NCBI GenBank assembly: GCA_021804965.1
Contig: JAJZGG010000021.1
Location: 1 to 37,612 of the forward strand
Direction of reading: 5' to 3'
DNA from: Acidobacteriota bacterium
GTDB lineage: Bacteria; Acidobacteriota; Terriglobia; Terriglobales; Acidobacteriaceae
DNA: 37,612 nt
A program made the translations under genes and the position numbers. This document shows, piece after piece, positions 1 through 10,901 of the stretch. How positions within the stretch are numbered: the stretch's first letter is position 1; every line of letters begins with the position of its first letter. The notes under the pieces are model-generated. The model had not been told where the DNA came from and made no database searches. It saw only the letters and a program-made list of their open reading frames with translations.

Positions 1-523
1 ACGGCCGCTGCTCTTCCGCAACCTGCACGACGGCAGGTTTGCCCTGGCTCCCGCGGTGGAGGGCACAGGCCTGGCGGATGTGATTCCCGGCCGCGGCGCA
101 GCCTTTGGCGACCTCTTCAACGATGGCAAGATCGACGTGGTTATCAATCCTATCGACGGCCCGGCGGTGCTGCTGCGCAATGTGAATCCGGATCACCACC
201 ACTGGGTGGAGCTGAAGCTGGTGGGCGGCGCAAAGAGCCCGAAGGATGCCATCGGCGCACGGGTCTTTCTGCGTGCCAACGGGATGCGGCAGCGCGAGGA
301 CGTCATGAGCGGCGGCAGCTATCTCTCCTCCAATGACCAGCGTCTGCACTTCGGCCTGGGGGATGCCACCCATGCCGGTGTGGCCCAGATTCGCTGGCCA
401 TCCGGCAGGCTGGAGACGGTCCGGCTTCCGGCCGTGGATCGCATCTATACGATTACGGAAGGCAGGGGAATCAGCAGACAAATCTGCAGCGGCGGCAGGC
501 CCTGCAGGGAGACGAAGCGATGA
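1..523 (+). CDS. CRTAC1-family ASPIC/UnbV repeat protein, C-terminal fragment
   Basis: The reading frame is open from the window edge (first full codon at base 2) to TGA at 521-523, so only the C-terminal ~173 residues are seen. They hold the end of the FG-GAP/VCBS beta-propeller (GRGAAFGDLFNDGKIDVV, a calcium-binding D-x-D-x-G type loop) and a full ASPIC/UnbV domain ending in WPSGRLETVRLPAVDRIYTITEG. The downstream gene starts inside its stop codon (ATGA), so the two are translationally coupled. The two C-termini are nearly superimposable, showing a tandem duplication. Members of this family are exported proteins thought to bind calcium and often glycans; the exact role is unknown. The N-terminus and any signal peptide lie outside the window. 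Confidence 0.9.
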   Translation, partial: RPLLFRNLHDGRFALAPAVEGTGLADVIPGRGAAFGDLFNDGKIDVVINPIDGPAVLLRNVNPDHHHWVELKLVGGAKSPKDAIGARVFLRANGMRQREDVMSGGSYLSSNDQRLHFGLGDATHAGVAQIRWPSGRLETVRLPAVDRIYTITEGRGISRQICSGGRPCRETKR

Positions 524-2418
524 GAAAGCTGGCAACATGGCTGCAGCTGGCTGCATCTGGTCTGGGCGTGGCCAGCCTCGGCGTGGCCAGTCTGGGTTTA
601 TTAAGTCTCGGCGTTGCCAGTCTCGGCGTGGCTAGTCTGGGCGTGGCCAGGGCGCAGAACTCCGGGATGGGTGGCGCATCCACGGGAGCGCCGGCCAAGC
701 CGGTCTACGATGCGCAGCATCGGCCGATCACCGCAGGCGGCATTGTGGACTCCGGTCCGCTGGTCTTTGCCGACATCTCGAAGCAGTCCGGACTGGCGGG
801 CTGGAAGCACGTGATGGGCACACCGGCCAAGCAGTACATTCTGGAGACGGACGGCTCCGGTGTGGGGCTGATCGATTACGACAATGACGGCTGGCTGGAT
901 ATCTATCTGGTGAACGGCTCCACCTATGACGCGCTGGACGGCAAAACCACTCCGCCGCACGCTGCGCTCTTCCACAACAACCACGACGGCACCTTCACCA
1001 ATGTGGCCGCCAGGGCCGGCGTGACCAACGACCGCTGGGGTTTTGGCGTGGCCATTGCCGACTATGACAACGATGGCTGGCCGGATATCTTTGTGGCCAA
1101 CTACGGCAAGAACCGGCTCTACCACAACAACCACAATGGCACCTTCACCGACGTGGGGGAAAAGGCCGGAATCACGCTGGGCAACTGGTCGGACGGGGTG
1201 GCCTGGGGCGACTATGACGGCGATGGGAAGCTGGATGTCTTCGTCACCGGCTATCTGCACTACGATGCGCACCATCAGCCGTCCTTTGGCGACCCCACCG
1301 TTCCCGATGCCTTCTGCCAGTTGCGTGGCATGGCCGTGATGTGCGGTCCGCGCGGGCTGAAGGGCGAGCCGGATCATCTCTTCCACAACAACGGCGATGG
1401 CACCTTCACCGATGTCAGCGTGAAGGCCGGCGTCAGCGATCCGGGCGGCTACTACGGCTTCACCCCGATCTTTGCCGATATGGAAAACAATGGCCGGCAG
1501 GATCTGCTGGTGGCCAATGACTCCACGCCCAACTACCTCTATCACAACAAGGGGGATGGCACCTTTGAAGACGACAGCTACGTCTCCGGCTTTGCCGTGA
1601 ACAAGGATGGCCGCGAGATTGCCTCGATGGGGCTGGCCGTGGGCGACTATCGCAACAACGGGCTGCTGGACATTCTGGTCACGGACTTTTCCGACGACTA
1701 CAAGGTGCTCTATCGCAATGACGGCGATCTGAACTTTACCGATGTCAGCGACGAGGTGGGGATTGCCAGCCTGCCGATTCCATTCCTGGGGTGGGGCGCC
1801 GGTCTGTTCGACTACGACAACGATGGCTGGAAGGATATCTACATGGTCAACGGCCATGTTTATCCGCAGGTGGACCAGCACGACTGGGGCACCAGCTATG
1901 CCGAACGCACACTGCTGTTCCGCAATCTGCAGGGGCAGAAGTTCCAGTACATTCCACCGGTGAAGGGCAGCGGTCTGGCCGTGGTCACGCCCGGGCGCGG
2001 CGCTGCCTTTGGCGACCTCTTCAACGATGGCCGGATCGATGTGGTCATCAATCCCGTGGATGGTCCGGCCGTGCTGCTGCGCAACGTCAATCCGGACCAT
2101 CATCACTGGGTGGAGCTGAAGCTGGTGGGCGGTGCGAAGAGTCCCCGCGATGCGGTGGGAGCCACGGTCTATCTGACCGCCAACGGCATGCGGCAGCGCG
2201 AGGATATTCTGAGCGGAGGCAGCTTTATCTCCTCCAACGACCAGCGCGCGCACTTTGGGTTGGGGGATGCGAAGGACGCCGGCACGGCGGAGATTCACTG
2301 GCCATCGGGAGCCAAAGAGAATGTGCGCCTGCCCGCGGTGGATCGCATTTATACGATCACCGAGGGCCACGGCATCACGGCATCGCTGTGCGGCGGCAGG
2401 CCGTGCGCACAGCGATGA
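520..2418 (+). CDS. CRTAC1-family secreted FG-GAP/ASPIC-UnbV protein
   Basis: 632 residues. The start ATG overlaps the stop of the upstream paralogue (ATGA). Residues 1-46 form an export signal with an odd hydrophobic core made of six 5-residue units (LGVAS, LGVAS, LGLLS, LGVAS, LGVAS, LGVAR), then ARAQ as a probable cleavage site. Residues ~75-490 hold repeated FG-GAP/VCBS blades with calcium-loop motifs such as DYDNDGWLDIY and DYDNDGWPDIF. The last ~100 residues are the ASPIC/UnbV domain. The protein is probably periplasmic or outer-surface. Family knowledge places such proteins among calcium-dependent, adhesion- or glycan-associated factors in Acidobacteriota; no enzymatic residue set can be named. 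It converges with the universal stress gene 22 bp downstream. Confidence 0.93.
   Translation: MRKLATWLQLAASGLGVASLGVASLGLLSLGVASLGVASLGVARAQNSGMGGASTGAPAKPVYDAQHRPITAGGIVDSGPLVFADISKQSGLAGWKHVMGTPAKQYILETDGSGVGLIDYDNDGWLDIYLVNGSTYDALDGKTTPPHAALFHNNHDGTFTNVAARAGVTNDRWGFGVAIADYDNDGWPDIFVANYGKNRLYHNNHNGTFTDVGEKAGITLGNWSDGVAWGDYDGDGKLDVFVTGYLHYDAHHQPSFGDPTVPDAFCQLRGMAVMCGPRGLKGEPDHLFHNNGDGTFTDVSVKAGVSDPGGYYGFTPIFADMENNGRQDLLVANDSTPNYLYHNKGDGTFEDDSYVSGFAVNKDGREIASMGLAVGDYRNNGLLDILVTDFSDDYKVLYRNDGDLNFTDVSDEVGIASLPIPFLGWGAGLFDYDNDGWKDIYMVNGHVYPQVDQHDWGTSYAERTLLFRNLQGQKFQYIPPVKGSGLAVVTPGRGAAFGDLFNDGRIDVVINPVDGPAVLLRNVNPDHHHWVELKLVGGAKSPRDAVGATVYLTANGMRQREDILSGGSFISSNDQRAHFGLGDAKDAGTAEIHWPSGAKENVRLPAVDRIYTITEGHGITASLCGGRPCAQR
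562..651 (+). repeat. Six tandem 15-bp units inside the signal peptide of the CRTAC1 gene
   Basis: Six consecutive 15-bp units encode LGVAS-type pentapeptides and together form the hydrophobic core of the export signal. Units differ by a few synonymous or conservative changes; the third encodes LGLLS. Because the unit is a multiple of three, gain or loss of a copy would lengthen or shorten the signal-peptide core without breaking the frame. Confidence 0.9.
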
Positions 2419-2440
2419 GCCGATGGCAAGGTCGGCAGTG

Positions 2441-3418
2441 CTAGAAGATTCCGGCCAGCCAATTGGATTCCGCCAGGTAATCGAAGCTGGGCGAAATCTC
2501 CTTCTGCGCGACCGCATGCTTCAGGGTCATGACCGGGCACAGGGATTTGCTGAGCACCTGGTTGACCATGCCCTGGCGCGTGATGGTGGCCAGCAGCGAA
2601 GCCGGATGCGCTCCCAGGACGATCAGGTCGCTCTGCCGCTGCTGTGCCTGATACAGAATCTCATCGGCAATCAGCGAGTCGGCCGGCAGGGAGCGGACCA
2701 GGATCCTGCTGTGCACGCTGGCCGGCAGCTGGGAGCGTAGCTCGGCTTCCAGCGTGGCCGTCGAGCAGCCGGGATCAAGATCCGGATCCTGGCGCGGTGG
2801 CACCAGATGCAGCACCGTAAGCTCGGCGCCGTGCATCGCAGCCAGCTGGCCGGCCAGCAGTGCCGGCTGCAGATCGCAGTTCAGGTGGGAGATGGTGCAA
2901 AGCACCCGATGCGGCGTGTGGGAATGCACCTTGGGGTCAAGGGCGTTGGGTCCCAGCGTGACCACCGGCACGGCGGCCGAACGCAGCACCTCTTCGGCAA
3001 CGGAGCCGACGAAAAATTTGCCCACGCGACTGGGTGCCCGCGTGCCCAGGATGATCCGGTCGATGGATCGTTCGTGGACGCAGGCCAGAATCTGCGAGGC
3101 CGCAATGCCGGCGCGGACCACGATCTCGGCCTGCACGCCAGCCGCAGCGGCACGCTTCTTCAGCGGCTCCATCTTTTCTGCTGCCCGCTGCAGGGCGTTT
3201 TCATAATGAATGGCGCGCACGCCGGCTGCGTCTTCCGTCGCCGTGGCCAGCACGTCGAAGACATGCAGCAGGACGAGCTTGGCACCAAACTCCCGGGCCG
3301 TGGCCAGTGCATAGGTAAAGGCACGTTCATCGGGCCGGGCCTCGCTGGCAAAGAGGATCGTGGAGGGGCGGATCCAGCGGGATTCTACCGAAGGCAGGTT
3401 GGGTTTGCGGGGTTTCAT
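2441..3418 (-). CDS. Universal stress protein, two UspA domains
   Basis: 325 residues with two tandem UspA folds. Domain 1 (about residues 15-155) begins with STILFASEARPDERAFTYAL and ends with DRIILGTRAP...GSVAEEVLRSAAVPVVTLGP, close to the Usp nucleotide-binding G-x2-G-x9-G(S/T) signature. Domain 2 (about 170-305) ends with DLIVLGAHPASLL...NQVLSKSLCPVMTL, with the glycine signature degenerate, so ATP binding is more likely in domain 1. The start is supported by a strong ribosome-binding site (AAGGAGG, complement of 3423-3429) six bases before the ATG. It is cytoplasmic and expected to act in stress or energy-limitation survival. The 3' end faces the CRTAC1 gene. In the uninterrupted chromosome this gene would lie just downstream of cydAB on the same strand, beyond the terminator at 3523-3561. 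Confidence 0.92.
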   Translation of the reverse strand: MKPRKPNLPSVESRWIRPSTILFASEARPDERAFTYALATAREFGAKLVLLHVFDVLATATEDAAGVRAIHYENALQRAAEKMEPLKKRAAAAGVQAEIVVRAGIAASQILACVHERSIDRIILGTRAPSRVGKFFVGSVAEEVLRSAAVPVVTLGPNALDPKVHSHTPHRVLCTISHLNCDLQPALLAGQLAAMHGAELTVLHLVPPRQDPDLDPGCSTATLEAELRSQLPASVHSRILVRSLPADSLIADEILYQAQQRQSDLIVLGAHPASLLATITRQGMVNQVLSKSLCPVMTLKHAVAQKEISPSFDYLAESNWLAGIF

Positions 3419-3501
3419 AATGCCTCCTTATCGCAGGACAGCAAGCGAGCGCGTTCTGTAGCTGCCCCTATCATGCACCCATTTTGTCCCCAGTGGTGTG
3501 A

Positions 3502-3516
3502 TTCCAGTCACTGGAA
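3502..3516. promoter_or_regulatory. 15-bp perfect palindrome upstream of the universal stress gene
   Basis: TTCCAGTCACTGGAA is a perfect inverted repeat with a one-base centre, 84-98 bp upstream of the stress-gene start codon and just past the cyd terminator. Its size and place fit an operator for a dimeric regulator. No family can be named and no clear -35/-10 pair was identified. Confidence 0.35.
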
Positions 3517-3522
3517 ACAAGG

Positions 3523-3561
3523 AAAAAGCAGATGCGTCCATCCTGCGATGGACGCATCTGC
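3523..3561 (-). terminator. Intrinsic terminator, native end of the cydAB transcript
   Basis: On the minus strand a perfect 15-bp stem (bases 3547-3561 pairing with 3528-3542, four-base loop) is followed directly by a run of five T (complement of 3523-3527). It lies about 54 bp past the stop codon left over from the original cydB end (3615-3617), so it is the natural cydAB terminator. The integrated element now separates it from the working cydB stop codon by about 3.4 kb. Confidence 0.88.
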
Positions 3562-3569
3562 CCTATTTT

Positions 3570-3595
3570 GGGTGCACTCGTTTTGGGGTGCACTC
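3570..3595. repeat. Two GGGTGCACTC direct repeats, 16 bp apart
   Basis: GGGTGCACTC occurs at 3570-3579 and again at 3586-3595. Each contains the palindrome GTGCAC. They lie between the displaced cydB stop codon and the terminator, on the host side of the left attachment site. No role is evident. Confidence 0.4.
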
Positions 3596-3614
3596 ATTGG
3601 AACCCGATTCGGAC

Positions 3615-3665
3615 TCAGCCCAGCCGGGAGTGGCTGCCCACCTTGCCGCAGAACATCGTGTAGGA
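3615..3665 (-). pseudogene. cydB: Displaced native 3' end of cydB
   Basis: Read on the minus strand in the cydB frame, this piece encodes SYTMFCGKVGSHSRLG and a TGA stop. The first ten residues repeat those at the end of the present cydB (frame at 6966-8009), after which the two sequences diverge (SHSRLG here, RVSRHP there). It is the original gene terminus, cut off by insertion of the element. It has no start of its own. Confidence 0.9.
3637..3665. repeat. Left attachment site, 29-bp direct repeat
   Basis: 29 bases starting CCCACCTTGCC and ending CGTGTAGGA are identical to 6988-7016. The match breaks at both ends (G versus A before, C versus G after). The left side continues into native cydB 3' sequence and the cyd terminator, so this is the host-element junction distal to the cydB body. 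Confidence 0.93.
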
Positions 3666-3688
3666 CAAGTGGAAAGGAGTGTTGAGGC

Positions 3689-3838
3689 ATGATAAAGCAG
3701 CGTGGCACATCGTATCAGGTGGATGTGATTCAGGACGGGAAACGCATCCGCAGGCAGTTCAAGAAACGGAAGGACGCGGTCGAGTTTGAGCGGTCTTTCA
3801 GGCATGCGTCGAAGCTGCGGCGGCGCAACCGGGATTAG
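3689..3838 (+). CDS. Integrase arm-type DNA-binding domain as a separate 49-residue frame
   Basis: 49 residues, MIKQRGTSYQVDVIQ... to RRRNRD, start supported by AAAGGAG nine bases upstream. The pattern G-x-SYQVDV-x-x-GKRIRRQFKKRKDAVEFE is that of the N-terminal arm-type DNA-binding domain of phage-like tyrosine recombinases (a three-strand sheet plus helix that binds arm sites). It normally forms residues 1-60 of the integrase itself. Here it ends at TAG (3836-3838). The recombinase frame is open from 3790, so the two frames overlap by ~49 bp, and a -1 shift between 3790 and 3838 would join them. Either the integrase is frameshifted (mutation or sequencing error), or the arm domain acts as a separate protein, perhaps excisionase-like. 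I cannot decide which from sequence alone. Confidence 0.75.
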   Translation: MIKQRGTSYQVDVIQDGKRIRRQFKKRKDAVEFERSFRHASKLRRRNRD

Positions 3839-3903
3839 CAGCAGGAATCCGCAAAGTCCGCGATTGGCGCGGCTTTGCGGCTCGTTCAAGGTACACACCG
3901 TTG

Positions 3904-4827
3904 ATGATGGAACGAGTGGTCAAAGAGTGGGCAGACAGGTACCCGGCAACACTGACAGCGGATGAGATTGCGGACTGGTGGAGGCGTGAATTCGCAGTCG
4001 CATCTGAGAGAAACCCGAACGGCTTCGCACAGATAACCCGGCAGCAGTACGCTGCTGCTCTGAAGGTGATTTTCCGGGCGATGGGCGTATCTGAGGAAGC
4101 TGTACAGGCTTTGCCAAGATCACGTCACATCATCCCGCGCAGTGTGACAGTCGATGATGCAGGCTTTGAGGCAGTCTTTGAGAAAGCAGACGATGCAACT
4201 CGCTTGTTTCTGCTGCTTTGCAGGGATGCTGCACTGCGGTCTGGGACAGCTTGCCGCGTGACAGCAGAGAACATCTACATCGACCGTGGCGAGTGGTATA
4301 TACGCATGCCGACAAAGCGCGGACACTGGACCTCGGTTCCGTTAACGCGGCGGCTGCGCGGTCTGGTGGAGATTGCTGCTGCGAGATCACGGGAAGGGAT
4401 GACGCTGCTAACCGCGCTCAACAATGGTGTGCCGTTGGCTGCGAATACGTTCCGAGAGCGTGTGATGCGGCTTCGCAAGTGGGCAGCAGAAGTGCATGGA
4501 CTGAATCCGAATTGGTACATGCACGACCTGCGGCGGACAGCTGCAAAGCGGCTGTATGAAGCCACCCGGGACATTGGCAAAGTGCAGCGGCTACTGTCAC
4601 ATAAGCAAGCTGGAATCACCTTGGCATATCTCACCGGTGAGCAGTCGGCGCTGAGCGGTGCTGAGTTGGAACAGGCTCTTGAAGCCAGAAGGGATAATCA
4701 TGTTCGACACGATGAAACAGGAACAAGTGACGGCGCGGGAGAAGCTGAAGTCCCCGGAGCAGTGGATACAATACGCGGAGTCAGTCGCCATGCAGGCGGC
4801 TTCTCAGGCAGGGGCGTCGGGTACTGA
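3904..4827 (+). CDS. Tyrosine recombinase (integrase), core-binding and catalytic domains
   Basis: 307 residues from ATG 3904 (TTG 3901 and ATG 3907 are alternatives; an AAGGT lies ~11 bases upstream). Residues 1-75 form a helical core-binding domain. The catalytic domain has the full tyrosine-recombinase set: R112 (in ALRSG), K138 (in TKRGHW), H207 and R210 (in MHDLRRT), H233 (in LLSHK) and nucleophile Y242 (in AYLTG). It should catalyse integration and excision between the 29-bp repeats. It lacks its own arm-binding domain, which is found in another frame just upstream. The same frame is open from 3790, so translation may start earlier or by frameshift. The 3' end overlaps the next ORF by 128 bp. 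The long low-complexity tail after residue ~255 may be an effect of that overlap. Confidence 0.88.
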   Translation: MMERVVKEWADRYPATLTADEIADWWRREFAVASERNPNGFAQITRQQYAAALKVIFRAMGVSEEAVQALPRSRHIIPRSVTVDDAGFEAVFEKADDATRLFLLLCRDAALRSGTACRVTAENIYIDRGEWYIRMPTKRGHWTSVPLTRRLRGLVEIAAARSREGMTLLTALNNGVPLAANTFRERVMRLRKWAAEVHGLNPNWYMHDLRRTAAKRLYEATRDIGKVQRLLSHKQAGITLAYLTGEQSALSGAELEQALEARRDNHVRHDETGTSDGAGEAEVPGAVDTIRGVSRHAGGFSGRGVGY

Positions 4828-5041
4828 CGGACCGACCACAGCAATGGTGATGCGCTCGGTTTACATGGACTGCCTGCCGCCGTGCGCTGGCAGAACGGTA
4901 AAACACTTTATCGCATGCGTAGCGCACGGTCGGCTGGTCGGGCTAATCAGCAACGAGGATGTGAAGTCGATGCTCTACGCGGCGCAGGTGGCAATCCAAG
5001 CCGCGAAGCTCGGGAGCAGGAGCAAAGACCATGCACGTTGA
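4700..5041 (+). CDS. Element-borne hypothetical protein, 113 residues
   Basis: Start at ATG 4700 (MFDTMKQEQVTAREK...), preceded by AGAAGGGAT with suitable spacing. It overlaps the integrase 3' end by 128 bp in a different frame. The sequence is soluble-looking: a helical, charged N-terminus (residues 1-30), an alanine-rich middle, a CLPPC pair with a later Cys, and a C-terminal helix (NEDVKSMLYAAQVAIQAAKLG). I recognise no family. Its place directly after the recombinase suggests an accessory recombination, replication or maintenance role for the element, which is inference. Confidence 0.6.
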   Translation: MFDTMKQEQVTAREKLKSPEQWIQYAESVAMQAASQAGASGTDGPTTAMVMRSVYMDCLPPCAGRTVKHFIACVAHGRLVGLISNEDVKSMLYAAQVAIQAAKLGSRSKDHAR

Positions 5042-5237
5042 AGATCCCCACAACCTGAACAGAAGCCAGTCTACCATCCGGCTGGTACTCATCCTGGAAG
5101 CCGCGGCAATGGAGTTGTGGGAAGTCTCCACGCTCACGGACGCTGCAGAAATGTGGGAGCAGGCGCGAGCAGCTGCGAGTCGTGTGCTTGCGGCCTGCGA
5201 ACGTAGCGAACCCACCAGCCCACGCGCTGACCTGTAG
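5031..5237 (+). CDS. Element-borne small hypothetical protein, 68 residues
   Basis: ATG at 5031 overlaps the last 11 bases of the preceding ORF, and GGAGCAGGAG lies just upstream, so coupled translation is plausible. The product begins MHVEDPHNLN and is mainly helical (IRLVLILEAAAMELWEVS, then AAEMWEQARAAASRVLAACE). No family is recognised. Its stop codon abuts the first copy of a 15-bp direct repeat (5236-5250). Real-gene status rests on the start overlap and ribosome-binding site only. Confidence 0.5.
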   Translation: MHVEDPHNLNRSQSTIRLVLILEAAAMELWEVSTLTDAAEMWEQARAAASRVLAACERSEPTSPRADL

Positions 5238-5291
5238 TTAGGCCGGAGCAAAAGAAAGAGCCGCTGAGGACGCCGGAGTTAGGCCGGTGCA
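5236..5291 (+). repeat. 15-bp imperfect direct repeat, 41 bp apart
   Basis: AGTTAGGCCGGAGCA (5236-5250) recurs as AGTTAGGCCGGTGCA (5277-5291) with one change. The second copy sits in the loop of the 12-bp hairpin at 5256-5303. Function unknown; it could be a protein-binding iteron at the edge of the non-coding tract. Confidence 0.55.
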
Positions 5292-6124
5292 TCAGCGGCT
5301 CTTGCTGTTGCTCGCTGTGGTCGACGACGGGGCTGCGCTCGAGCGCGTGGCGTGGTTCGAACGGTGCAAAAGACAGAGCCGTGCGAAGGCGAACGATTCG
5401 TGCTAGGACGCGGATGGGCGGCCAGCACGTCCGGCGGCCGCTTCGCGTCACGCCTCCCTTTGCTGTCCGGTGCCGTGCCCGGCACCTGCGTCTCTCCGCT
5501 CCCGCTGGTCGCTACGTTCCTTGCCCGGCAGGTTTCCCAGGTGCTGCGCCGGCGAGCAGATGTGACGCTGCGATGCATGGTGACGGCTCCGCACCCCAAT
5601 CGCGGAGACGGCAGCGCCCTCCGCTGCGCTACGCTTCGCTCTCCCCGCTGCCGCCTCGGCGTTGCGCGTGGCCGCGCCGCCTCGAAGTACGGATGCGATC
5701 CTGAGCTCTGGATTCCACGGCGACCAGTTCCCGCCACGCGCACCCCTCGGTTGCTGCGCTAAGGCGCAGCAATCCCGCGACTTCGCGCTCACGCGCTCCG
5801 TTGTGGTGGCGCTGACGCGCCACGGCTTTGCGGCTCAGGGCTGCTTGCATCCTCGCCGCTTCGCGTCTCGCATGCCCGGCGCTGACGCGCTTGCAGCGCC
5901 CTGCAGCGCTGCTGGCCGGTGCTGACGCACCGGCAGCGGAGCCGGTCGCTACGCTCCCACAGGCGCTACTCTACGCGCCTGAGGACGGGCGACCATCCGT
6001 GAGCGTCGTCGTCTTTCTTCATGATCCTGCGCCCATTGTCAAGGCCGAGCCGCTGCGCGGTGCCATTCGCAGCGCATGACGCGCTGCGCCCGGCAGCCTT
6101 GACAAAGGGACGCCGAGACGGACC
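5238..6124. other. Hairpin-rich, apparently non-coding tract in the element
   Basis: About 890 bp with no credible gene: open frames here are Arg/Ala/Pro/Ser-rich in every frame, as expected of unselected GC-rich DNA. It is packed with short inverted repeats, several sharing a TGAC loop: GGCGC-TGAC-GCGCC near 5808-5821, GCCGGTGC-TGAC-GCACCGGC near 5914-5933, CGCAGCGC-ATGAC-GCGCTGCG at 6068-6088. Others are TTGCTGCGC-TAAG-GCGCAGCAA (5751-5772) and GGTGCC-N6-GGCACC near 5469-5486. A 13-mer GCCGCTTCGCGTC occurs at 5437-5449 and 5855-5867, and GGTCGCTACG occurs twice. It may be a structured RNA, a replication or transfer origin, or a recombination regulatory region; I cannot choose. Confidence 0.55.
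5256..5303. terminator. 12-bp hairpin after the 68-residue ORF, possible terminator
   Basis: AAGAGCCGCTGA (5256-5267) pairs perfectly with TCAGCGGCTCTT (5292-5303) around a 24-base loop, starting 19 bases after the upstream stop codon. There is no T-run after the stem, so it is not a textbook intrinsic terminator. It could stabilise the transcript end or mark the start of the structured tract. Confidence 0.4.
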
Positions 6125-6140
6125 ATGAAGACGACGACGC
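6003..6140. promoter_or_regulatory. Nested long inverted repeat enclosing the start of the 59-residue gene
   Basis: GCGTCGTCGTCTT (6003-6015) pairs perfectly with AAGACGACGACGC (6128-6140); CATG pairs with CATG (6020-6023 / 6124-6127); TTGTCAAGGC (6036-6045) pairs with GCCTTGACAA (6096-6105), extended by CCC/GGG after one mismatch. Inside is an 8-bp hairpin (6068-6075 / 6081-6088), which competes with CGCTGCG (6051-6057) for the same strand. The start codon of the next ORF (6125-6127) lies within the paired arm. This fits a leader that hides the start codon, or a DNA cruciform. Confidence 0.6.
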
Positions 6141-6304
6141 AACATCAGTGCTCAACGTGCGGCGCGACCGGAAACGGCAAGCCGCTTGCCTTCACTCTCA
6201 CCATTGCATCCTCGGTGCCCATCGGTCGGCGGCCAGTGGTGCTGCGCCGGTGGTTCTGCAGCGTGGCCTGTCTGGTGCGGTCGTTCGGTGGCTTGGCTCC
6301 GTGA
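6125..6304 (+). CDS. Small Cys-pair (zinc-ribbon-like) protein, 59 residues
   Basis: ATG 6125 to TGA 6302-6304. It begins MKTTTQHQCSTCGATGNGKP and ends VLRRWFCSVACLVRSFGGLAP. C9-x2-C12 and C45-x3-C49 are spaced like the two halves of a small zinc ribbon; the FCSVACL ending resembles treble-clef or zinc-finger microproteins common on phages and integrative elements. No good ribosome-binding site is visible, and the start codon lies in the arm of a long inverted repeat, suggesting translational control. DNA or protein binding is inferred only. Confidence 0.55.
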   Translation: MKTTTQHQCSTCGATGNGKPLAFTLTIASSVPIGRRPVVLRRWFCSVACLVRSFGGLAP

Positions 6305-6318
6305 GCCGGTGCCCCGCG

Positions 6319-6335
6319 CTTGCCGGGCTTCGCCC
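6319..6335. other. GC hairpin after the 59-residue gene
   Basis: GCCGGGC and GCCCGGC form a 7-bp stem with a 3-base TTC loop, about 15 bases after the stop codon of the small Cys-pair gene. No T-run follows. It may be a weak terminator or transcript-end stabiliser. Confidence 0.35.
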
Positions 6336-6358
6336 GGCGCGCGCCGGAGCCGCAGTTA

Positions 6359-6376
6359 TGCACCACATCTGGTGCA
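6359..6376. promoter_or_regulatory. 18-bp palindrome, copy 1 (TGCACCA-N4-TGGTGCA)
   Basis: TGCACCA CATC TGGTGCA, a perfect 7-bp inverted repeat with a 4-base centre, ~110 bp upstream of the 119-residue ORF. The same arms recur at 6851-6868 with a different centre, and a half-site TGGTGCA is at 6903-6909. Conservation of arms but not centre is typical of an operator for a dimeric regulator. Confidence 0.55.
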
Positions 6377-6487
6377 GATAGCGGCCAGCCATACAGCCGG
6401 ATGTGGTTGTTGGCGAGTAAGTTAGTAGCATGGTTGACAACGCTCCCCCGGTTCAAGTTTTGATCGGAGCGATGGAGGGACCGGCAA

Positions 6488-6847
6488 ATGGTCGTTTTGG
6501 ACACGTCAGAGAAGGTGCAGGCAGTGTGTCGCCTGCGCGAGCACATCAGGTGGCAGCGGCTCCGGGCGGACGGCAAGGTGATGCCGCTGCAGGCGAAGCG
6601 CGGAAGGCCGGGCACAAACGGGCATAACCAATACGATGCGCGGATCATCAGGTTTGTGGACATGGATCGTGTGCTGCGAGTATTCGGAGCGCCGGAATAC
6701 GGATGGCTGGTGCGCCACGTTGTCGACGGCGACAGTGTGCCGGTCATCGCGCAGGATGCGGACATGCCTCAAAGGCTGGTGGAGGATTCCATCCGCGCAT
6801 CGATCACGATCCTAACCGACCGGATGCGTGACCGGAACATGCTCTGA
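6488..6847 (+). CDS. Element-borne hypothetical protein, 119 residues
   Basis: Start ATG 6488 has GGAGGGA about seven bases upstream, the best ribosome-binding site in the right part of the element. The N-terminal half is basic (REHIRWQRLRADGKV, KRGRPGTNGHNQYDARIIRF). The C-terminal half looks helical (YGWLVRHVVDGDSVPVIAQDADMPQRLVEDSIRASITILTDRM). A basic front and helical back are compatible with DNA binding, but I recognise no family. A TTGACA at 6434-6439 may be a -35 box, although the matching -10 is poor. The gene lies between two copies of the 18-bp palindrome and ends two bases before an intrinsic terminator, so it is a good candidate for the regulator of the element. Confidence 0.65.
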   Translation: MVVLDTSEKVQAVCRLREHIRWQRLRADGKVMPLQAKRGRPGTNGHNQYDARIIRFVDMDRVLRVFGAPEYGWLVRHVVDGDSVPVIAQDADMPQRLVEDSIRASITILTDRMRDRNML

Positions 6848-6848
6848 G

Positions 6849-6885
6849 ATTGCACCAGCCATGGTGCAATGTCACATGTTTTTTT
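6849..6885 (+). terminator. Intrinsic terminator of the 119-residue gene; includes palindrome copy 2
   Basis: ATTGCACCA-GCCA-TGGTGCAAT (6849-6870) is a perfect 9-bp stem, and seven T follow at 6879-6885, eight bases after the stem. The stem contains the second TGCACCA-N4-TGGTGCA palindrome (6851-6868), so it may act both as terminator and as protein-binding site. The gap between stem and T-run is longer than usual. Confidence 0.6.
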
Positions 6886-6982
6886 CGCACCTGTCACACG
6901 GCTGGTGCAGAACCCGTCACACAGACACTCTGATTCGGTGCATAATTACTGGAGATATTCGCGGTCTAAGGATGACGTGACA
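6871..6982. repeat. Phased GTCACA boxes beside the right attachment site
   Basis: GTCACA occurs at 6871, 6893 and 6916, spaced 22 and 23 bp (about two helical turns), plus an inverted copy (GTGACA) at 6977-6982 next to the 29-bp repeat. Spacing and position fit arm-type recombinase or accessory-protein binding sites of an attachment region. Confidence 0.45.
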
Positions 6983-8009
6983 CACGACCCACCTTGCCGC
7001 AGAACATCGTGTAGGAGATGGTGAAGTAGAGGATTGCCAGCAGCATGCCAAAGATCCACCACAGCAGTCCGACGTGGAGCGTGTAGGGACTGGAGATGGC
7101 GGCGCTCAGCGTGATGCTCCGATCCGCGCCAGTGGTGGCCGGCAGCAGCGTGGGGAACAGTCCCCAGCAGGCACCCACCAGCATGCATGCCAGATAGGCG
7201 CACGAGCCCAGGAAGGCGCGAAAGGCCTGCCCGCGGCGGTGCAGCAGCAGTGTGGCCACCAGCGAGCCAAGCACGGCCAGCGGCAGCAGATACGTCACCG
7301 GATAGCGGTTGTAGTTGACCAGCGTGGCCGGCTGCACGGCCATGGTGGCCGGTACGCTGAGCAGCGTCAGCACCAGCACCACGGTCCACAGGACAGGCAC
7401 CAGCCGTGCGGCGCGCCGTTCCACCTCGCCGGTCGTCTTCAGGCTCAGCCACAGCGCTCCGTGCAGCGTGAGTGCTGTGCAGGCCAGCAGTCCTCCCAGC
7501 ACGGTGTACCAGTCCAGCACGCCGGGATGAACGCCAGGACGCCAGTCGGTCCACAGCGGCAGGAAGAAGTAGCCATCGGCCTGCAGCGGCACGCCGCGGA
7601 TCACGTTGGCCAGGGCCGCGCCGAGAAAGATCGTGAGCAGCAGGCTGGCCACCGCGAAGAGTCCGTCCAGCAGCGCCCGCCAGACGCCAACGTCGATATG
7701 GTTGCGCAGCTCAAGCGTGACGCCGCGAACAACCAGCAGCCAGAGTACGATCATCAGCGGCAGATAGAAGCCGCTGAAGGCCGAGGCATACAGCCAGGGA
7801 AAGGCAAAGTACAGCGTGCCGCCGCCGGCCAGCAGCCATACCTCGTTGCCATCCCACACCGGACCAATGGACTGCACCACCATGCGGCGCTCATCCTCGC
7901 GATGGGCCACAAACAGATGCAGGACTCCGGTGCCCAGATCGAAGCCGTCCAGCACCACATAGGCCACGATCATGCAGCCAACCAGCCAGAACCAGAGAAC
8001 TCCCATCAT
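6966..8009 (-). CDS. cydB: Cytochrome bd quinol oxidase subunit II, C-terminus remodelled by element
   Basis: 347 residues, about nine membrane helices, starting MMGVLWFWLVGCMIVAYVVLDGFD. GPVWDGNEVWLLAGGGTLYFAFP is the family signature. With CydA it forms the membrane terminal oxidase that reduces oxygen with quinol at high affinity. Start chosen from AGGAGG (complement of 8016-8021), six bases before the ATG. It lies 39 bp after cydA on the same strand, so one operon. The last six residues (RVSRHP) and the TAG come from the integrated element; the native end was SHSRLG (see 3615-3665). The change falls after the last membrane segment in a short tail, so function is probably kept. The transcript now runs antisense into the element. 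Confidence 0.95.
   Translation of the reverse strand: MMGVLWFWLVGCMIVAYVVLDGFDLGTGVLHLFVAHREDERRMVVQSIGPVWDGNEVWLLAGGGTLYFAFPWLYASAFSGFYLPLMIVLWLLVVRGVTLELRNHIDVGVWRALLDGLFAVASLLLTIFLGAALANVIRGVPLQADGYFFLPLWTDWRPGVHPGVLDWYTVLGGLLACTALTLHGALWLSLKTTGEVERRAARLVPVLWTVVLVLTLLSVPATMAVQPATLVNYNRYPVTYLLPLAVLGSLVATLLLHRRGQAFRAFLGSCAYLACMLVGACWGLFPTLLPATTGADRSITLSAAISSPYTLHVGLLWWIFGMLLAILYFTISYTMFCGKVGRVSRHP
6988..7016. repeat. Right attachment site, 29-bp direct repeat inside cydB
   Basis: Identical to 3637-3665. In the cydB frame it encodes the conserved end (YTMFCGKV, minus strand). Sequence to its right is continuous cydB; sequence to its left belongs to the element and supplies the new last codons and stop. 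Confidence 0.93.
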
Positions 8010-8048
8010 TTGATTCCTCCTGAAGACGCCGCGAGCGTCCCTGCAACC

Positions 8049-9389
<1,341 letters not shown>

Positions 9390-9531
9390 GGAAGACTCCC
9401 TGCTGATGAAGCGCCGTTGCCTGGGCAGTCCGCCGGGAAATGCGGACCGCGAATCCTACATGCATTCTGGACTTCCCGGAATCGAATGTCCATCGCCGGA
9501 TTCAGAATCGCCGCCCAGCCGGACGGTCAGC

Positions 9532-9547
9532 AGTGATGAACGTCACA
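9532..9547. promoter_or_regulatory. Crp/Fnr-family-like operator in the cydA / radical SAM divergent region
   Basis: AGTGA-TGAACG-TCACA matches the Crp-type consensus TGTGA-N6-TCACA at nine of ten defined positions. It is ~50 bp upstream of the radical SAM start and ~140 bp from the cydA start, so it could serve either promoter. The regulator cannot be named; Crp/Fnr-superfamily members often tie oxidase and heme genes to oxygen or energy state. Confidence 0.5.
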
Positions 9548-9596
9548 GCGAAGGCCCATCGCGGGGAGTACACCGGGAGTGTGGAGGTCAAACACA

Positions 9597-10901
9597 ATGC
9601 AACCCATGGTGGAACTGCCCGCACGTGGCGGGCTGGATTATGACGAAACGCCGTTCCTTGCAATCTGGGAGGTCACCCAGTCCTGCGATCTGGCCTGCAA
9701 ACACTGCCGCGCAGCCGCCCAGCCGGAGGCGCATCCGGAGCAGTTGACGACGCGGCAGGGCAAGGCCCTCATCGATCAGATTGCCGAGATGCACGTACCG
9801 GTCTTTGTGCTCACGGGCGGGGATCCGCTCAAGCGTGCCGATATCTTTGAGCTGGTCGAGCATGCCGCTGCGCGCGGCGTCCGCGTCGCGCTTACGCCCA
9901 GTGCCACGCCGCTGCTCACGCGGGAGGCCATCTTCCGCCTGCGGGATGCCGGTCTGGTTCGGCTGGGCATCTCCCTGGACGGCTCCAGCCCGGAGATTCA
10001 CGATATCTTTCGCGGGCTGCCCGGAGCCTGGCAGCGCACGGTGGAGGCGGTGGGTTGGGCTGCCGAGGCCGGAATTCCCATTCAGGTTCACACCACGCTG
10101 AGCCGCCACAATGCGCACGATCTGGAGGCCATGACGGCCCTGCTGCAGCGGCTGGAAGTCGTGATGTGGAATCTCTTTTTCCTGGTTCCGGTTGGCCGCG
10201 GACAGCAGGCGGACATGCTCACCGGCGAGGAGTTCGAGGCCATCTTCGGCCACCTGTATGAGCTTTCCCGGCGCGCTCCATTCCAGATCAAGACCACCGA
10301 GGCCATGCACTACCGGCGCTATCTGATCCAGCACAATCTGCAGGAGCGACAGGCCGGCCACGCAGCCGGGCATCCCCACGGCGCGGGCGCTTCCCAAGGC
10401 GTGACCGGGGGAATGCCGGAAAGCGCTATCACCTCGGCGGCAGAAACCGGCCGTGCCGCCTCTGCGGATATCGACCACTATTCCGCCGGAGCGCCCAGAA
10501 CCTCGGCTGCGGAACGCAATCGCGTGTGGGCCACGCGGCGCGTGAATGATGGCCGTGGATTCGTCTTCATCTCGCATCGCGGCGAGGTCTTTCCCAGCGG
10601 ATTTCTGCCCATGCGTGCGGGCAGCATTCTGGAAAAGCCGCTGGCGGAGATCTATCGCGAGGCGCCCATCTTTCAGGCATTGCGCAATACGGACATGCTG
10701 CGCGGCAAGTGCGGCGTCTGCGAGTACCGGCAAATCTGCGGCGGTTCGCGGGCGCGTGCCTATGCCATGACCGGGGATCCGCTGGCGGCCGAGCCCTGCT
10801 GCACCTATCAGCCGCGGGGATGGAAGCCGGAGCACGCTTCGGTCGCATTGCAACGGTTGGAGGAGATGTCGCCATCGCAGGCGCTGGTACAGCTTCGGTA
10901 A
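9597..10901 (+). CDS. Radical SAM/SPASM protein, TIGR04053-type
   Basis: 434 residues. Start at ATG 9597, with GGAGG nine bases upstream; an in-frame GTG at 9579 is less likely. Residues ~30-40 carry CDLACKHC (CxxxCxxC, the SAM-binding [4Fe-4S] site), followed by FVLTGGDPLKR (the GGE-like SAM-binding motif) and VRLGISLDG. The C-terminus has a SPASM-type cysteine set (CGVCEYRQICGG ... AEPCC) for an auxiliary cluster. Segments such as LTPSATPLLTREAI and FQIKTTEAMHYRR match the TIGR04053 subfamily, a relative of the heme-d1/AhbD-type enzymes whose reaction is unproven. A ~55-residue Gly/Ala/Ser-rich insert (about 265-320) is low-complexity. It precedes a porphyrinogen oxidase gene by 41 bp, which supports a tetrapyrrole-related role. 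Confidence 0.88.
   Translation: MQPMVELPARGGLDYDETPFLAIWEVTQSCDLACKHCRAAAQPEAHPEQLTTRQGKALIDQIAEMHVPVFVLTGGDPLKRADIFELVEHAAARGVRVALTPSATPLLTREAIFRLRDAGLVRLGISLDGSSPEIHDIFRGLPGAWQRTVEAVGWAAEAGIPIQVHTTLSRHNAHDLEAMTALLQRLEVVMWNLFFLVPVGRGQQADMLTGEEFEAIFGHLYELSRRAPFQIKTTEAMHYRRYLIQHNLQERQAGHAAGHPHGAGASQGVTGGMPESAITSAAETGRAASADIDHYSAGAPRTSAAERNRVWATRRVNDGRGFVFISHRGEVFPSGFLPMRAGSILEKPLAEIYREAPIFQALRNTDMLRGKCGVCEYRQICGGSRARAYAMTGDPLAAEPCCTYQPRGWKPEHASVALQRLEEMSPSQALVQLR

What the first reader, a model, noticed from the sequence alone, without database searches (positions are those of the whole stretch)
3637..7016. Small integrative element that targets the 3' end of a respiratory oxidase gene
Seen: perfect 29-bp repeats 3351 bp apart, both in cydB sequence, with a tyrosine recombinase inside. 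Known: most such recombinases use tRNA or tmRNA genes; a few use protein-gene 3' ends. Inferred: a very compact integrative element family specialised on cydB, with small genes of unknown function only. It is the best candidate here for an undescribed system.
Basis: partly seen in the sequence, partly recalled or inferred. Interest (0 to 1): 0.85.

Follow-up and report, generated by a model that had tools for sequence, protein, structure and literature searches.

The report
Tiny integrating element with frameshifted integrase
A 3.35-kb piece of foreign DNA has slotted itself into the very end of a respiratory gene in a bacterium of the Acidobacteriaceae, and it belongs to a family of tiny elements whose inserting enzyme is spread over two overlapping reading frames that ribosomes probably bridge by slipping back one letter.

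Summary
A perfect 29-bp direct repeat (3637-3665, 6988-7016) bounds a 3,351-bp element with a tyrosine recombinase. G004, the relative with the most similar CydB, has the empty site: its alignments to the two flanks overlap by exactly 29 bp and its cydB ends SHSRLG. The element supplies a substitute 3' end of equal length (347 aa).

"A family specialised on cydB" is wrong. I found 17 arm-plus-integrase loci; 15 also carry p112, 11 of those p68 and 11 a p119-type gene. Where mapped, each sits at its own site: gyrB 3' end, mnmG 5' end, tRNA-Arg, a peptidase S9 3' end and others. Nine bounded p112-bearing elements are 3.03-3.59 kb.

The surprise is the integrase. Its arm-binding domain is a separate upstream ORF and the core lies in the -1 frame in 17 of 17. 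A motif known to be shift-prone in E. coli sits at the transition in 17 of 17, against 228 of 856 control windows. Several members have no start codon before the core-binding domain. I infer programmed -1 frameshifting: strongly for the family, less for this copy, where internal starts exist. Transfer is probably helper-dependent; untested.

The parts
3615..3665 (-). Displaced original 3' end of cydB (codons ending ...GSHSRLG-stop), containing the left att copy
   Evidence: Sequence; joined flanks give a 347-aa CydB ending GSHSRLG; G004 cydB ends the same way
3637..3665 (.). attL: left copy of the 29-bp repeat
   Evidence: overlap of exactly 29 bp against the empty site of G004
3689..3838 (+). 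Arm ORF, 49 aa: arm DNA-binding domain of the integrase
   Evidence: phrog_11531 integrase E 7.3e-6; Pfam Arm-DNA-bind_4 E 0.015, below its cut-off; homologous arm ORF in all 17 loci counted
3796..3799 (+). Candidate -1 slip site T_TTC (codon 37 of the arm ORF, followed by AGG)
   Evidence: same place in G008 (T_TTC) and G116 (T_TTT)
3790..4827 (+). Tyrosine recombinase: open frame from 3790, -1 relative to the arm ORF; first start codons TTG 3901, ATG 3904, ATG 3907
   Evidence: Phage_integrase E 2.6e-17; phrog_1 E 2e-20; frame relation
4700..5041 (+). p112: five-helical protein of unknown function with the conserved stretch LYAAQVA
   Evidence: Homologs in 13-sequence alignment A11; AlphaFold mean pLDDT 83.5; no Foldseek match at E <= 0.001
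5031..5237 (+). p68: small conserved protein of unknown function
   Evidence: Alignment A13 of 12 sequences
5246..5313 (.). Strong hairpin behind p68 (22-nt arms, 91 % complementary)
   Evidence: I2; DNA folding z -6.06 for 5240-5320
6003..6140 (.). Two-tier palindrome; inner arms GTCAAGG...CCTTGAC at 6038-6103; right outer arm overlaps the start of p59
   Evidence: DNA folding z -8.65; similar hairpins in six other members; but similar patterns also occur outside the elements
6125..6304 (+). p59: small Cys-rich protein (CxxC ... CxxxC), possible zinc finger
   Evidence: 65 % identical homolog in G008 (by MAFFT; by tblastn); no Pfam, PHROG, PADLOC or NCBIfam match
6488..6847 (+). p119: sigma-region-4-type HTH protein
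   Evidence: AlphaFold model mean pLDDT 82.4 best matches sigma region 4 of the PDB (3hug, TM 0.83 by target, Foldseek E 0.046); this copy itself has no Pfam or NCBIfam match
6988..7016 (.). attR: right copy of the 29-bp repeat, inside the present cydB ORF
6966..8009 (-). cydB, whose last 22 bases (6966-6987, with the stop) come from the element: ends GRVSRHP instead of GSHSRLG, same length

Best explanation
This is a 3,351-bp integrative element that entered the chromosome by tyrosine-recombinase recombination between a 29-bp site at the 3' end of cydB and the same 29 bp on the element; it keeps CydB whole by supplying a substitute end of equal length. It belongs to a family of about 3.3-kb elements of Acidobacteriaceae with the layout att, arm ORF, integrase, p112, p68 (not always), then p119 and a long hairpin with p59 in either order, att. 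The members with mapped ends use different sites: 3' or 5' ends of protein genes and tRNA genes. The integrase is most likely made by programmed -1 ribosomal frameshifting. Ribosomes that do not slip make a small arm-binding protein; those that slip on a homopolymer run at the end of the arm domain make the full arm-core-catalytic integrase. That would keep the integrase scarce and leave a free arm-binding protein that could compete for arm sites or steer excision. I recognised no capsid, relaxase or replication gene, so the element probably moves with a helper (phage or conjugative element). Shown: boundaries, empty site, family, frame relation, shift motifs. Inferred: frameshifting (strong for the family, moderate for this copy), excision, the role of the free arm protein. 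Speculative: the helper and the hairpin's function.
For: Empty site with exact 29-bp overlap in G004. Seventeen arm-plus-integrase loci, 15 with p112. Integrase in the -1 frame in 17 of 17, and a motif of the E. coli-efficient set in the transition in 17 of 17 against 228 of 856 control windows. First ATG/GTG/TTG in the integrase frame lies 344-644 nt past the arm start in eight loci by the lists (SZAS3b 347, G035 389, G153 392, Occallatibacter 407, G732 416, DBS1 455, G627 500, SZAS3a 644), while phrog_1 matches begin before it (Occallatibacter residue 46, first start residue 103; G627 residue 65, first start residue 157). SZAS3a against G627: changes by -1-frame codon position 17/8/37 over 124 overlapping codons, identity 85 % in the -1 frame and 66 % in frame 0. 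Five members share an SD-like AAGGA/AAAGAG sequence, C_CCA_AAA and a hairpin 5-6 nt downstream, 35 of 35 cells paired. Published E. coli ranking of these motifs (PMC4066793, passages).
Against: No expression data. In the window copy TTG/ATG starts at 3901-3907 could give a core protein on their own. Of ten sequence pairs tested, only one has a clear and two a slight excess of changes at -1-frame third positions; identity is higher in the -1 frame in 7 of 10 pairs, equal in 1 and lower in 2. Folding downstream of the slip sites is not significant in general (24 values, lowest z -2.05). The motif set and the transition window were fixed after I had seen the first sites, and relatedness is not corrected for. 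No excised circle or transfer has been seen. The GTCAAGG hairpin pattern occurs at 6 places outside the elements and 5 inside them (10 genomes).
Confidence: 0.78

Rival explanations
1. Same element, but the arm ORF and the integrase core are two separately translated proteins (internal start or translational coupling) that work together in trans; no frameshift.
For: The window copy has TTG/ATG starts at 3901-3907 and its phrog_1 match begins about there (residue 40 of the open frame). G116 and G610 also have starts fairly early (188 and 152 nt after the arm start).
Against: In several members the core-binding domain lies upstream of every ATG/GTG/TTG of its frame; the frame relation is -1 in 17 of 17 and a shift-prone motif is there in 17 of 17.
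Confidence: 0.18
2. Refinement on transfer: a phage satellite that excises and is packaged by a helper phage, with p119 sensing or steering phage transcription and the hairpin as replication or packaging signal.
For: Narrow size range, 3027-3589 bp in nine bounded elements; a p119 homolog lies in a prophage head/connector cluster of G639 (E 6.6e-21; major head protein, head maturation protease, head-tail adaptors); int-p112 overlap resembles the integrase-overlapping gene of PICMIs (PMC10803314, passages).
Against: No capsid, terminase, primase or AlpA match. No relative of the integrase, p59, p119, p112 or p68 in viral contigs. Catalogued satellites are 6-18 kb (PMC11389934, passage). No credible arm, integrase, p112 or p68 match in the first 35 kb of the G639 contig with the prophage.
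Confidence: 0.35
3. Refinement on transfer: a hitchhiker of conjugative elements, the long hairpin acting as a transfer origin for a relaxase supplied in trans.
For: Long conserved two-tier hairpin; small size; no transfer genes recognised.
Against: No relaxase family match; no plasmid match for integrase or p59; the hairpin is only a candidate, and similar patterns occur outside the elements.
Confidence: 0.2
4. The split integrase is a decayed pseudogene or an assembly error.
For: G008's copy is broken by an insertion-sequence-like stretch (by eye).
Against: The same -1 arrangement in 17 of 17 loci from many assemblies, including a named isolate (Occallatibacter savannae AB23) and single-contig genomes (G153, G610, G627); catalytic R, H, R and Y positions are present in the window copy (by eye, motif recalled).
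Confidence: 0.04
5. A family specialised on cydB.
For: This copy is at cydB.
Against: Other members sit at gyrB, mnmG, peptidase S9, hexapeptide-repeat and tRNA-Arg genes. Of 15 genomes of the genus, 9 have a CydB-like match; the ends read in G004, G007, G013 and G014 are intact.
Confidence: 0.03

Closest known systems
[quoted passage not shown] abstract opening and passages seen)
   Same: Very small integrative element, integrase followed by an overlapping small gene, large non-coding stretches, no capsid genes.
   Different: PICMI115 has alpA and primase genes, is about 6 kb (8 copies = about 49 kbp), and PICMIs are sought beside fis. None of these features was found here; here the elements are about 3.3 kb, sites vary, and the integrase is in two frames.
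IS1/IS3-family insertion sequences with -1 programmed frameshifting (PMC4066793, passages)
   Same: Small mobile element whose recombination enzyme needs a -1 shift at Z_ZZN or X_XXZ_ZZN motifs, with SD-like and hairpin stimulators in part of the members.
   Different: Those enzymes are DDE transposases (recalled); here it is a site-specific tyrosine integrase and the N-terminal product is an arm-binding domain.
Frameshift control of ICE-MlSymR7A excision (FseA, recalled; PMC5009743 passage on this ICE; PMC11963761 and PMC5882170 seen in the listing only)
   Same: Ribosomal frameshifting used in the control of an integrative element.
   Different: There an activator of excision is the frameshift product (recalled), not the integrase.
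Lambda/Tn916-type tyrosine integrases with a fused arm-binding domain (recalled)
   Same: Order arm, core-binding, catalytic domain; the element restores the end of its target gene.
   Different: There the arm domain is fused in one reading frame; here it is a separate 0-frame ORF.

Membership tests
Site-specific integrative element with tyrosine integrase | Direct repeat at both ends matching one copy in the empty site | tested here: met
   29-bp repeat; G004 empty site overlaps by exactly 29 bp
Site-specific integrative element with tyrosine integrase | Tyrosine recombinase gene next to one end | tested here: met
   Phage_integrase E 2.6e-17; arm ORF starts 52 bp from the start of attL
Site-specific integrative element with tyrosine integrase | Excision as a circle | not testable with these tools
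   No reads at hand
Gene using programmed -1 frameshifting | Overlapping ORFs with the downstream one in the -1 frame, conserved among relatives | tested here: met
   17 of 17 loci
Gene using programmed -1 frameshifting | Slippery motif at the transition | tested here: met
   17 of 17 against 228 of 856 control windows; motif ranking from PMC4066793
Gene using programmed -1 frameshifting | Stimulatory RNA signals | tested here: inconclusive
   SD-like sequence and hairpin in five members; no significant folding in general, the window copy included
Gene using programmed -1 frameshifting | Fusion protein made in cells | not testable with these tools
   Needs a reporter or mass spectrometry
Phage satellite (PICI, PICMI, P4-like) | Known satellite genes (AlpA, primase, terminase, capsid-remodelling) | tested here: not met
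   No such match in Pfam, PHROGs or NCBIfam for the window's proteins
Phage satellite (PICI, PICMI, P4-like) | Packaging by a helper phage | not testable with these tools
   No particle data
Integrative mobilizable element | Relaxase gene or proven oriT | tested here: inconclusive
   No relaxase match; a long hairpin is only a candidate

The most novel reading that the evidence does not exclude
A family of about 3.3-kb integrase-bearing elements, about half the size of the smallest catalogued phage satellites, has turned its tyrosine integrase into a frameshift-controlled two-product gene. Unslipped ribosomes make a free arm-binding protein that acts as the directionality or inhibitor factor, slipped ribosomes make the integrase, so one slip site sets the balance between staying, integrating and excising; a sigma-like protein and a conserved cruciform link this switch to a helper.
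Probability: 0.3. Interest if true: 0.88.

Novelty: new variant of a known kind. Interest (0 to 1): 0.72.

Why it matters
Programmed frameshifting is well known for transposases of small insertion sequences, but none of the titles and abstract openings listed by my searches describes it for a tyrosine integrase (one search listed none), and the word integrase does not occur in two long papers on frameshifting as held. If real, it is a new way to ration a site-specific recombinase and perhaps a built-in source of a free arm-binding domain. Gene callers would label such integrases broken or miss the arm domain, so this family, and perhaps others, would be under-annotated. The small, even size and the unknown core genes (p112, p68, p59) give a compact system for asking what a mobile hitchhiker needs at least. 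Homologous integrases using tRNA genes and 5' or 3' ends of protein genes offer material on how integrases change site.

Tried and rejected
Rfam: nothing above a family's gathering score at the element (one hit at E 0.53). Defence: no PADLOC match for the window's six proteins. The integrase alone found no relative in genome contigs, viral contigs or plasmids, and only a 31 %-identical Gordonia phage integrase in phages. Further searches of viral contigs with p59, p119, p112 and p68 alignments, of plasmids with p59 and of phages with p119 found nothing.

Weak p59-profile hits in 4 of 200 genomes (G097, G176, G075, G171) were inspected and dropped because no element genes surround them. The p119 profile matched 124 of 398 genomes; most hits are in ORFs of about 170-230 aa that I take for ECF sigma factors (not tested), so p119 was not used to count members. 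The p112 profile matched 68 of 398 genomes; of 20 loci inspected, 4 (L153, which is DBS1 again, L155, L156, L157) had arm plus integrase and 16 did not, two of these being cut by contig ends, so p112 prevalence is not element prevalence.

Left out of the size statistics: Occallatibacter (13-bp repeat, spacing 4751), G610 (26 bp, 4775), G627 and the two SZAS-3 copies (no repeat found, the latter cut by contig ends); G008 (19 bp, on two contigs); G002 (contig begins inside int); G035 (33 bp, 2746) and G055 (18 bp, 4643), which lack p112. Automatic consensus folding of the long hairpin failed (4 pairs only); the claim rests on single-sequence folding. The hairpin pattern is not element-specific: of 11 places in 10 genomes, 5 are in elements and 6 outside; the backward control pattern gave 5 hits against 13. 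Foldseek gave no relative of p112 at E <= 0.001. A first DNA alignment had wrong coordinates for G627 and was replaced.
Full report
OBSERVATION. The exact direct repeat is 29 bp (3637-3665 and 6988-7016; spacing 3351), with about 2e-10 expected by chance. The window genome (G000: 2.97 Mb, 141 contigs, 87.5 % complete) has one copy of the recombinase and of the element. G004, whose CydB is 96 % identical, aligns to window 68-3665 and 6988-9621 with an overlap of exactly 29 bp on its side (3566-3594 of L047) and nothing in between. Uninterrupted cydB ends were also read in G007, G013 and G014. Joining the window flanks gives a 347-aa CydB ending GSHSRLG; today's ORF is also 347 aa but ends GRVSRHP. 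So the element supplies a replacement end of equal length. Both 29-bp copies carry TGC (Cys) where the cydB of G004 and G007 has CGC (Arg); attB and attP shared that base or were made alike later.

ANATOMY. Plus strand: arm ORF 3689-3838, integrase, p112, p68, hairpin, long palindrome overlapping the start of p59, p119. GC is 61.7 % in the element and 63.6 % in the rest of the window. The AlphaFold model of p119 (mean pLDDT 82.4) best matches sigma region 4 domains (3hug, TM 0.83 by target, probability 1.00, but E 0.046). The window's own p119 has no Pfam or NCBIfam match; the Occallatibacter homolog matches sigma70-ECF at 5e-6, below the curated cut-off. p112 is five-helical with no fold match at E <= 0.001. 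No PADLOC family matched.

FAMILY. G008 has homologs of all six parts, split by contig ends and an insertion-sequence-like stretch in int (by eye), flanked by a different 19-bp repeat. Profiles then found members in G160, G002, Occallatibacter savannae AB23, SZAS-3 (two copies), DBS1-1.bin82, G116, G732, G627, G610 and G210, in G166, G073 and G153 and, as arm plus integrase without the other genes, in G035 and in G055 of another family of the class. Seventeen loci hold arm and integrase; 15 of them have p112, and of these 15, p68 was detected in 11 and a p119-type gene in 11 (some loci are cut by contig ends). Occallatibacter is Acidobacteriaceae and lies in the window's family group f1. p112 matched 68 of 398 genomes of the family and 6 of 396 drawn across the phylum, all 6 in the same family, but 16 of 20 p112 loci inspected lacked arm and integrase.

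TARGETS AND SIZE. Bounded members with p112: window cydB 3' end, 29 bp; DBS1 gyrB 3' end, 81-bp stretch with interruptions; G160 mnmG start, 15 bp; G732 hexapeptide-repeat gene 3' end, 17 bp; G210 peptidase S9 gene 3' end, 17 bp; G166 tRNA-Arg 3' part, 55 bp; G153 tRNA-Arg 5' end, 29 bp; G073, 46 bp, and G116, 18 bp, target not identified. Spacings in that order: 3351, 3589, 3291, 3378, 3340, 3035, 3244, 3351, 3027; mean 3290, SD 174. Outside this set: G610, 26 bp at the start of a nucleoside hydrolase gene, spacing 4775; Occallatibacter, 13 bp, 4751; G035, 33 bp, 2746; G055, 18 bp, 4643. The integrases have thus diverged in site; the family is no cydB specialist.

THE SPLIT INTEGRASE. In 17 of 17 loci the integrase frame is -1 relative to the arm ORF. 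Distance from arm start to the first ATG/GTG/TTG of the integrase frame after the frame opens: G610 152, G116 188, G166 209, window 212, G055 212, G210 215, G073 269, G008 275, G160 305, SZAS3b 347, G035 389, G153 392, Occallatibacter 407, G732 416, DBS1 455, G627 500, SZAS3a 644 (G210, G166 and G153 counted from the start of the profile match). phrog_1 matches begin at residue 46 in Occallatibacter (first start at residue 103) and residue 65 in G627 (first start at residue 157), so part of the conserved core-binding domain has no start codon of its own. In the window copy starts exist at 3901-3907 and the match begins about there, so the case there rests on homology. Motifs in the transition: T_TTC (window, G008), T_TTT (G116), C_CCT (G160, G210, DBS1, G732, G153), C_CCA_AAA (Occallatibacter, SZAS3a, SZAS3b, G627, G610, G166), A_AAA_AAA (G073, G035, G055). 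A motif of the efficient set occurs in 17 of 17 transitions and in 228 of 856 same-size control windows of the same genes (nominal binomial 1.7e-10; relatedness not corrected, and motif set and window were fixed after seeing the first sites). The E. coli study (PMC4066793; abstract and passages) ranks tetramers A_AA.G >> U_UU.C > U_UU.U > C_CC.U = C_CC.C > A_AA.A, gives C_CC.A_AA.G as the strongest heptamer (54 % with the IS3 stimulator) and lists C_CC.A_AA.A and A_AA.A_AA.A among motifs above 0.10 % without stimulators.

CODING AND STRUCTURE TESTS. SZAS3a against G627: over 124 overlapping codons changes fall 17/8/37 on -1-frame positions 1/2/3, identity 85 % in the -1 frame and 66 % in frame 0; upstream of the site they fall 2/3/11 on frame-0 positions. 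Of nine other pairs, Occallatibacter/G610 (10/10/18) and G160/G210 (18/18/25) lean the same way and the rest show little or no bias; identity is higher in the -1 frame in 7 of 10 pairs, equal in 1, lower in 2. Five members (Occallatibacter, SZAS3a, SZAS3b, G627, G610) share an AAGGA- or AAAGAG-type sequence upstream of C_CCA_AAA and a hairpin that starts 5-6 nt downstream: 35 of 35 cells paired, 2 of 7 pairs with changes on both sides; 5 of 500 shuffles reach the covariation score and 60 of 500 the number of such pairs; the structure was drawn from these same sequences. Folding of 50 and 80 nt downstream in 12 members is not significant (lowest z -2.05). Of 13 other integrase-family loci of relatives, 2 (L003 in G035, L005 in G055) proved to be the split type, 1 (L007) has a weak arm-like match upstream, 10 have no arm ORF by this profile.

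HAIRPIN. A two-tier palindrome with inner arms GTCAAGG...CCTTGAC precedes or overlaps the p59-type gene in the window, G008, G732, G210 and, in variant form, G160; in DBS1 it precedes an ATGAAAA start; G153 also has it. DNA folding z in that order: -8.65, -6.1, -6.5, -4.2, -3.8, -5.7, -1.4. The outer arms differ in sequence but stay complementary. Against specificity: the pattern was found at 11 places in 8 of 10 genomes, 5 in elements and 6 elsewhere with another loop; the backward control gave 5 hits against 13.

HOW IT LIKELY WORKS. Shown: element, boundaries, empty site, family, frame relation, motifs. Inferred: -1 frameshifting makes the arm-integrase fusion and leaves a free arm-binding protein. 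Speculative: that this protein influences direction, and that a helper moves the element. For a phage helper there is one circumstantial point, a p119 homolog inside a prophage head/connector cluster of G639; no credible arm, integrase, p112 or p68 match was found in the first 35 kb of that contig.

LITERATURE. Listings (titles and abstract openings; one search listed none) show no description of frameshifting in tyrosine integrases or of this family. The word integrase does not occur in PMC3711429 nor in the held first 300,000 of 475,107 characters of PMC5009743. PICMIs (PMC10803314, passages) are the closest small satellites; a review gives 6-18 kb for satellites (PMC11389934, passage). Most subscription papers and preprints are not in this library.

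VERDICT. Observation confirmed; integration at the cydB 3' end supported; cydB-specialised family rejected; a compact element family with a probably frameshift-expressed integrase. Interest 0.72.

Noticed in passing
L139-L148 (G610, ten places): p112-like genes stand alone at ten places of one single-contig genome, in two groups of dispersed repeats of roughly 0.3-1.3 kb that are about 70-97 % identical to one another, without arm or integrase; possibly a separate small repeat family carrying this gene.
   Followed up: partly
L090 (G639) 5263-5730: A p119 homolog lies inside a prophage cluster with major head protein, head maturation protease and head-tail adaptor genes.
   Followed up: partly
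L091 (G125) 5184-6275: p68-like and p119-like genes next to each other without arm or integrase; a remnant or a different element.
   Followed up: partly
window 3528-3561: Perfect 15-bp inverted repeat with a 4-nt loop just beyond the displaced cydB end: perhaps the old cydB terminator, now 3.4 kb away from the gene.
   Followed up: no
window 3637-3665 and 6988-7016: Both att copies encode Cys (TGC) at a place where the CydB of G004, G007, G013 and G014 has Arg (MFCGK against MFRGK).
   Followed up: partly
G000:C7:2471-2524 and G008:C37, G160:C37 (two), G004:C146, G610:C1: GTCAAGG...CCTTGAC hairpin patterns outside the elements, several with a similar loop of their own; origin unknown.
   Followed up: no
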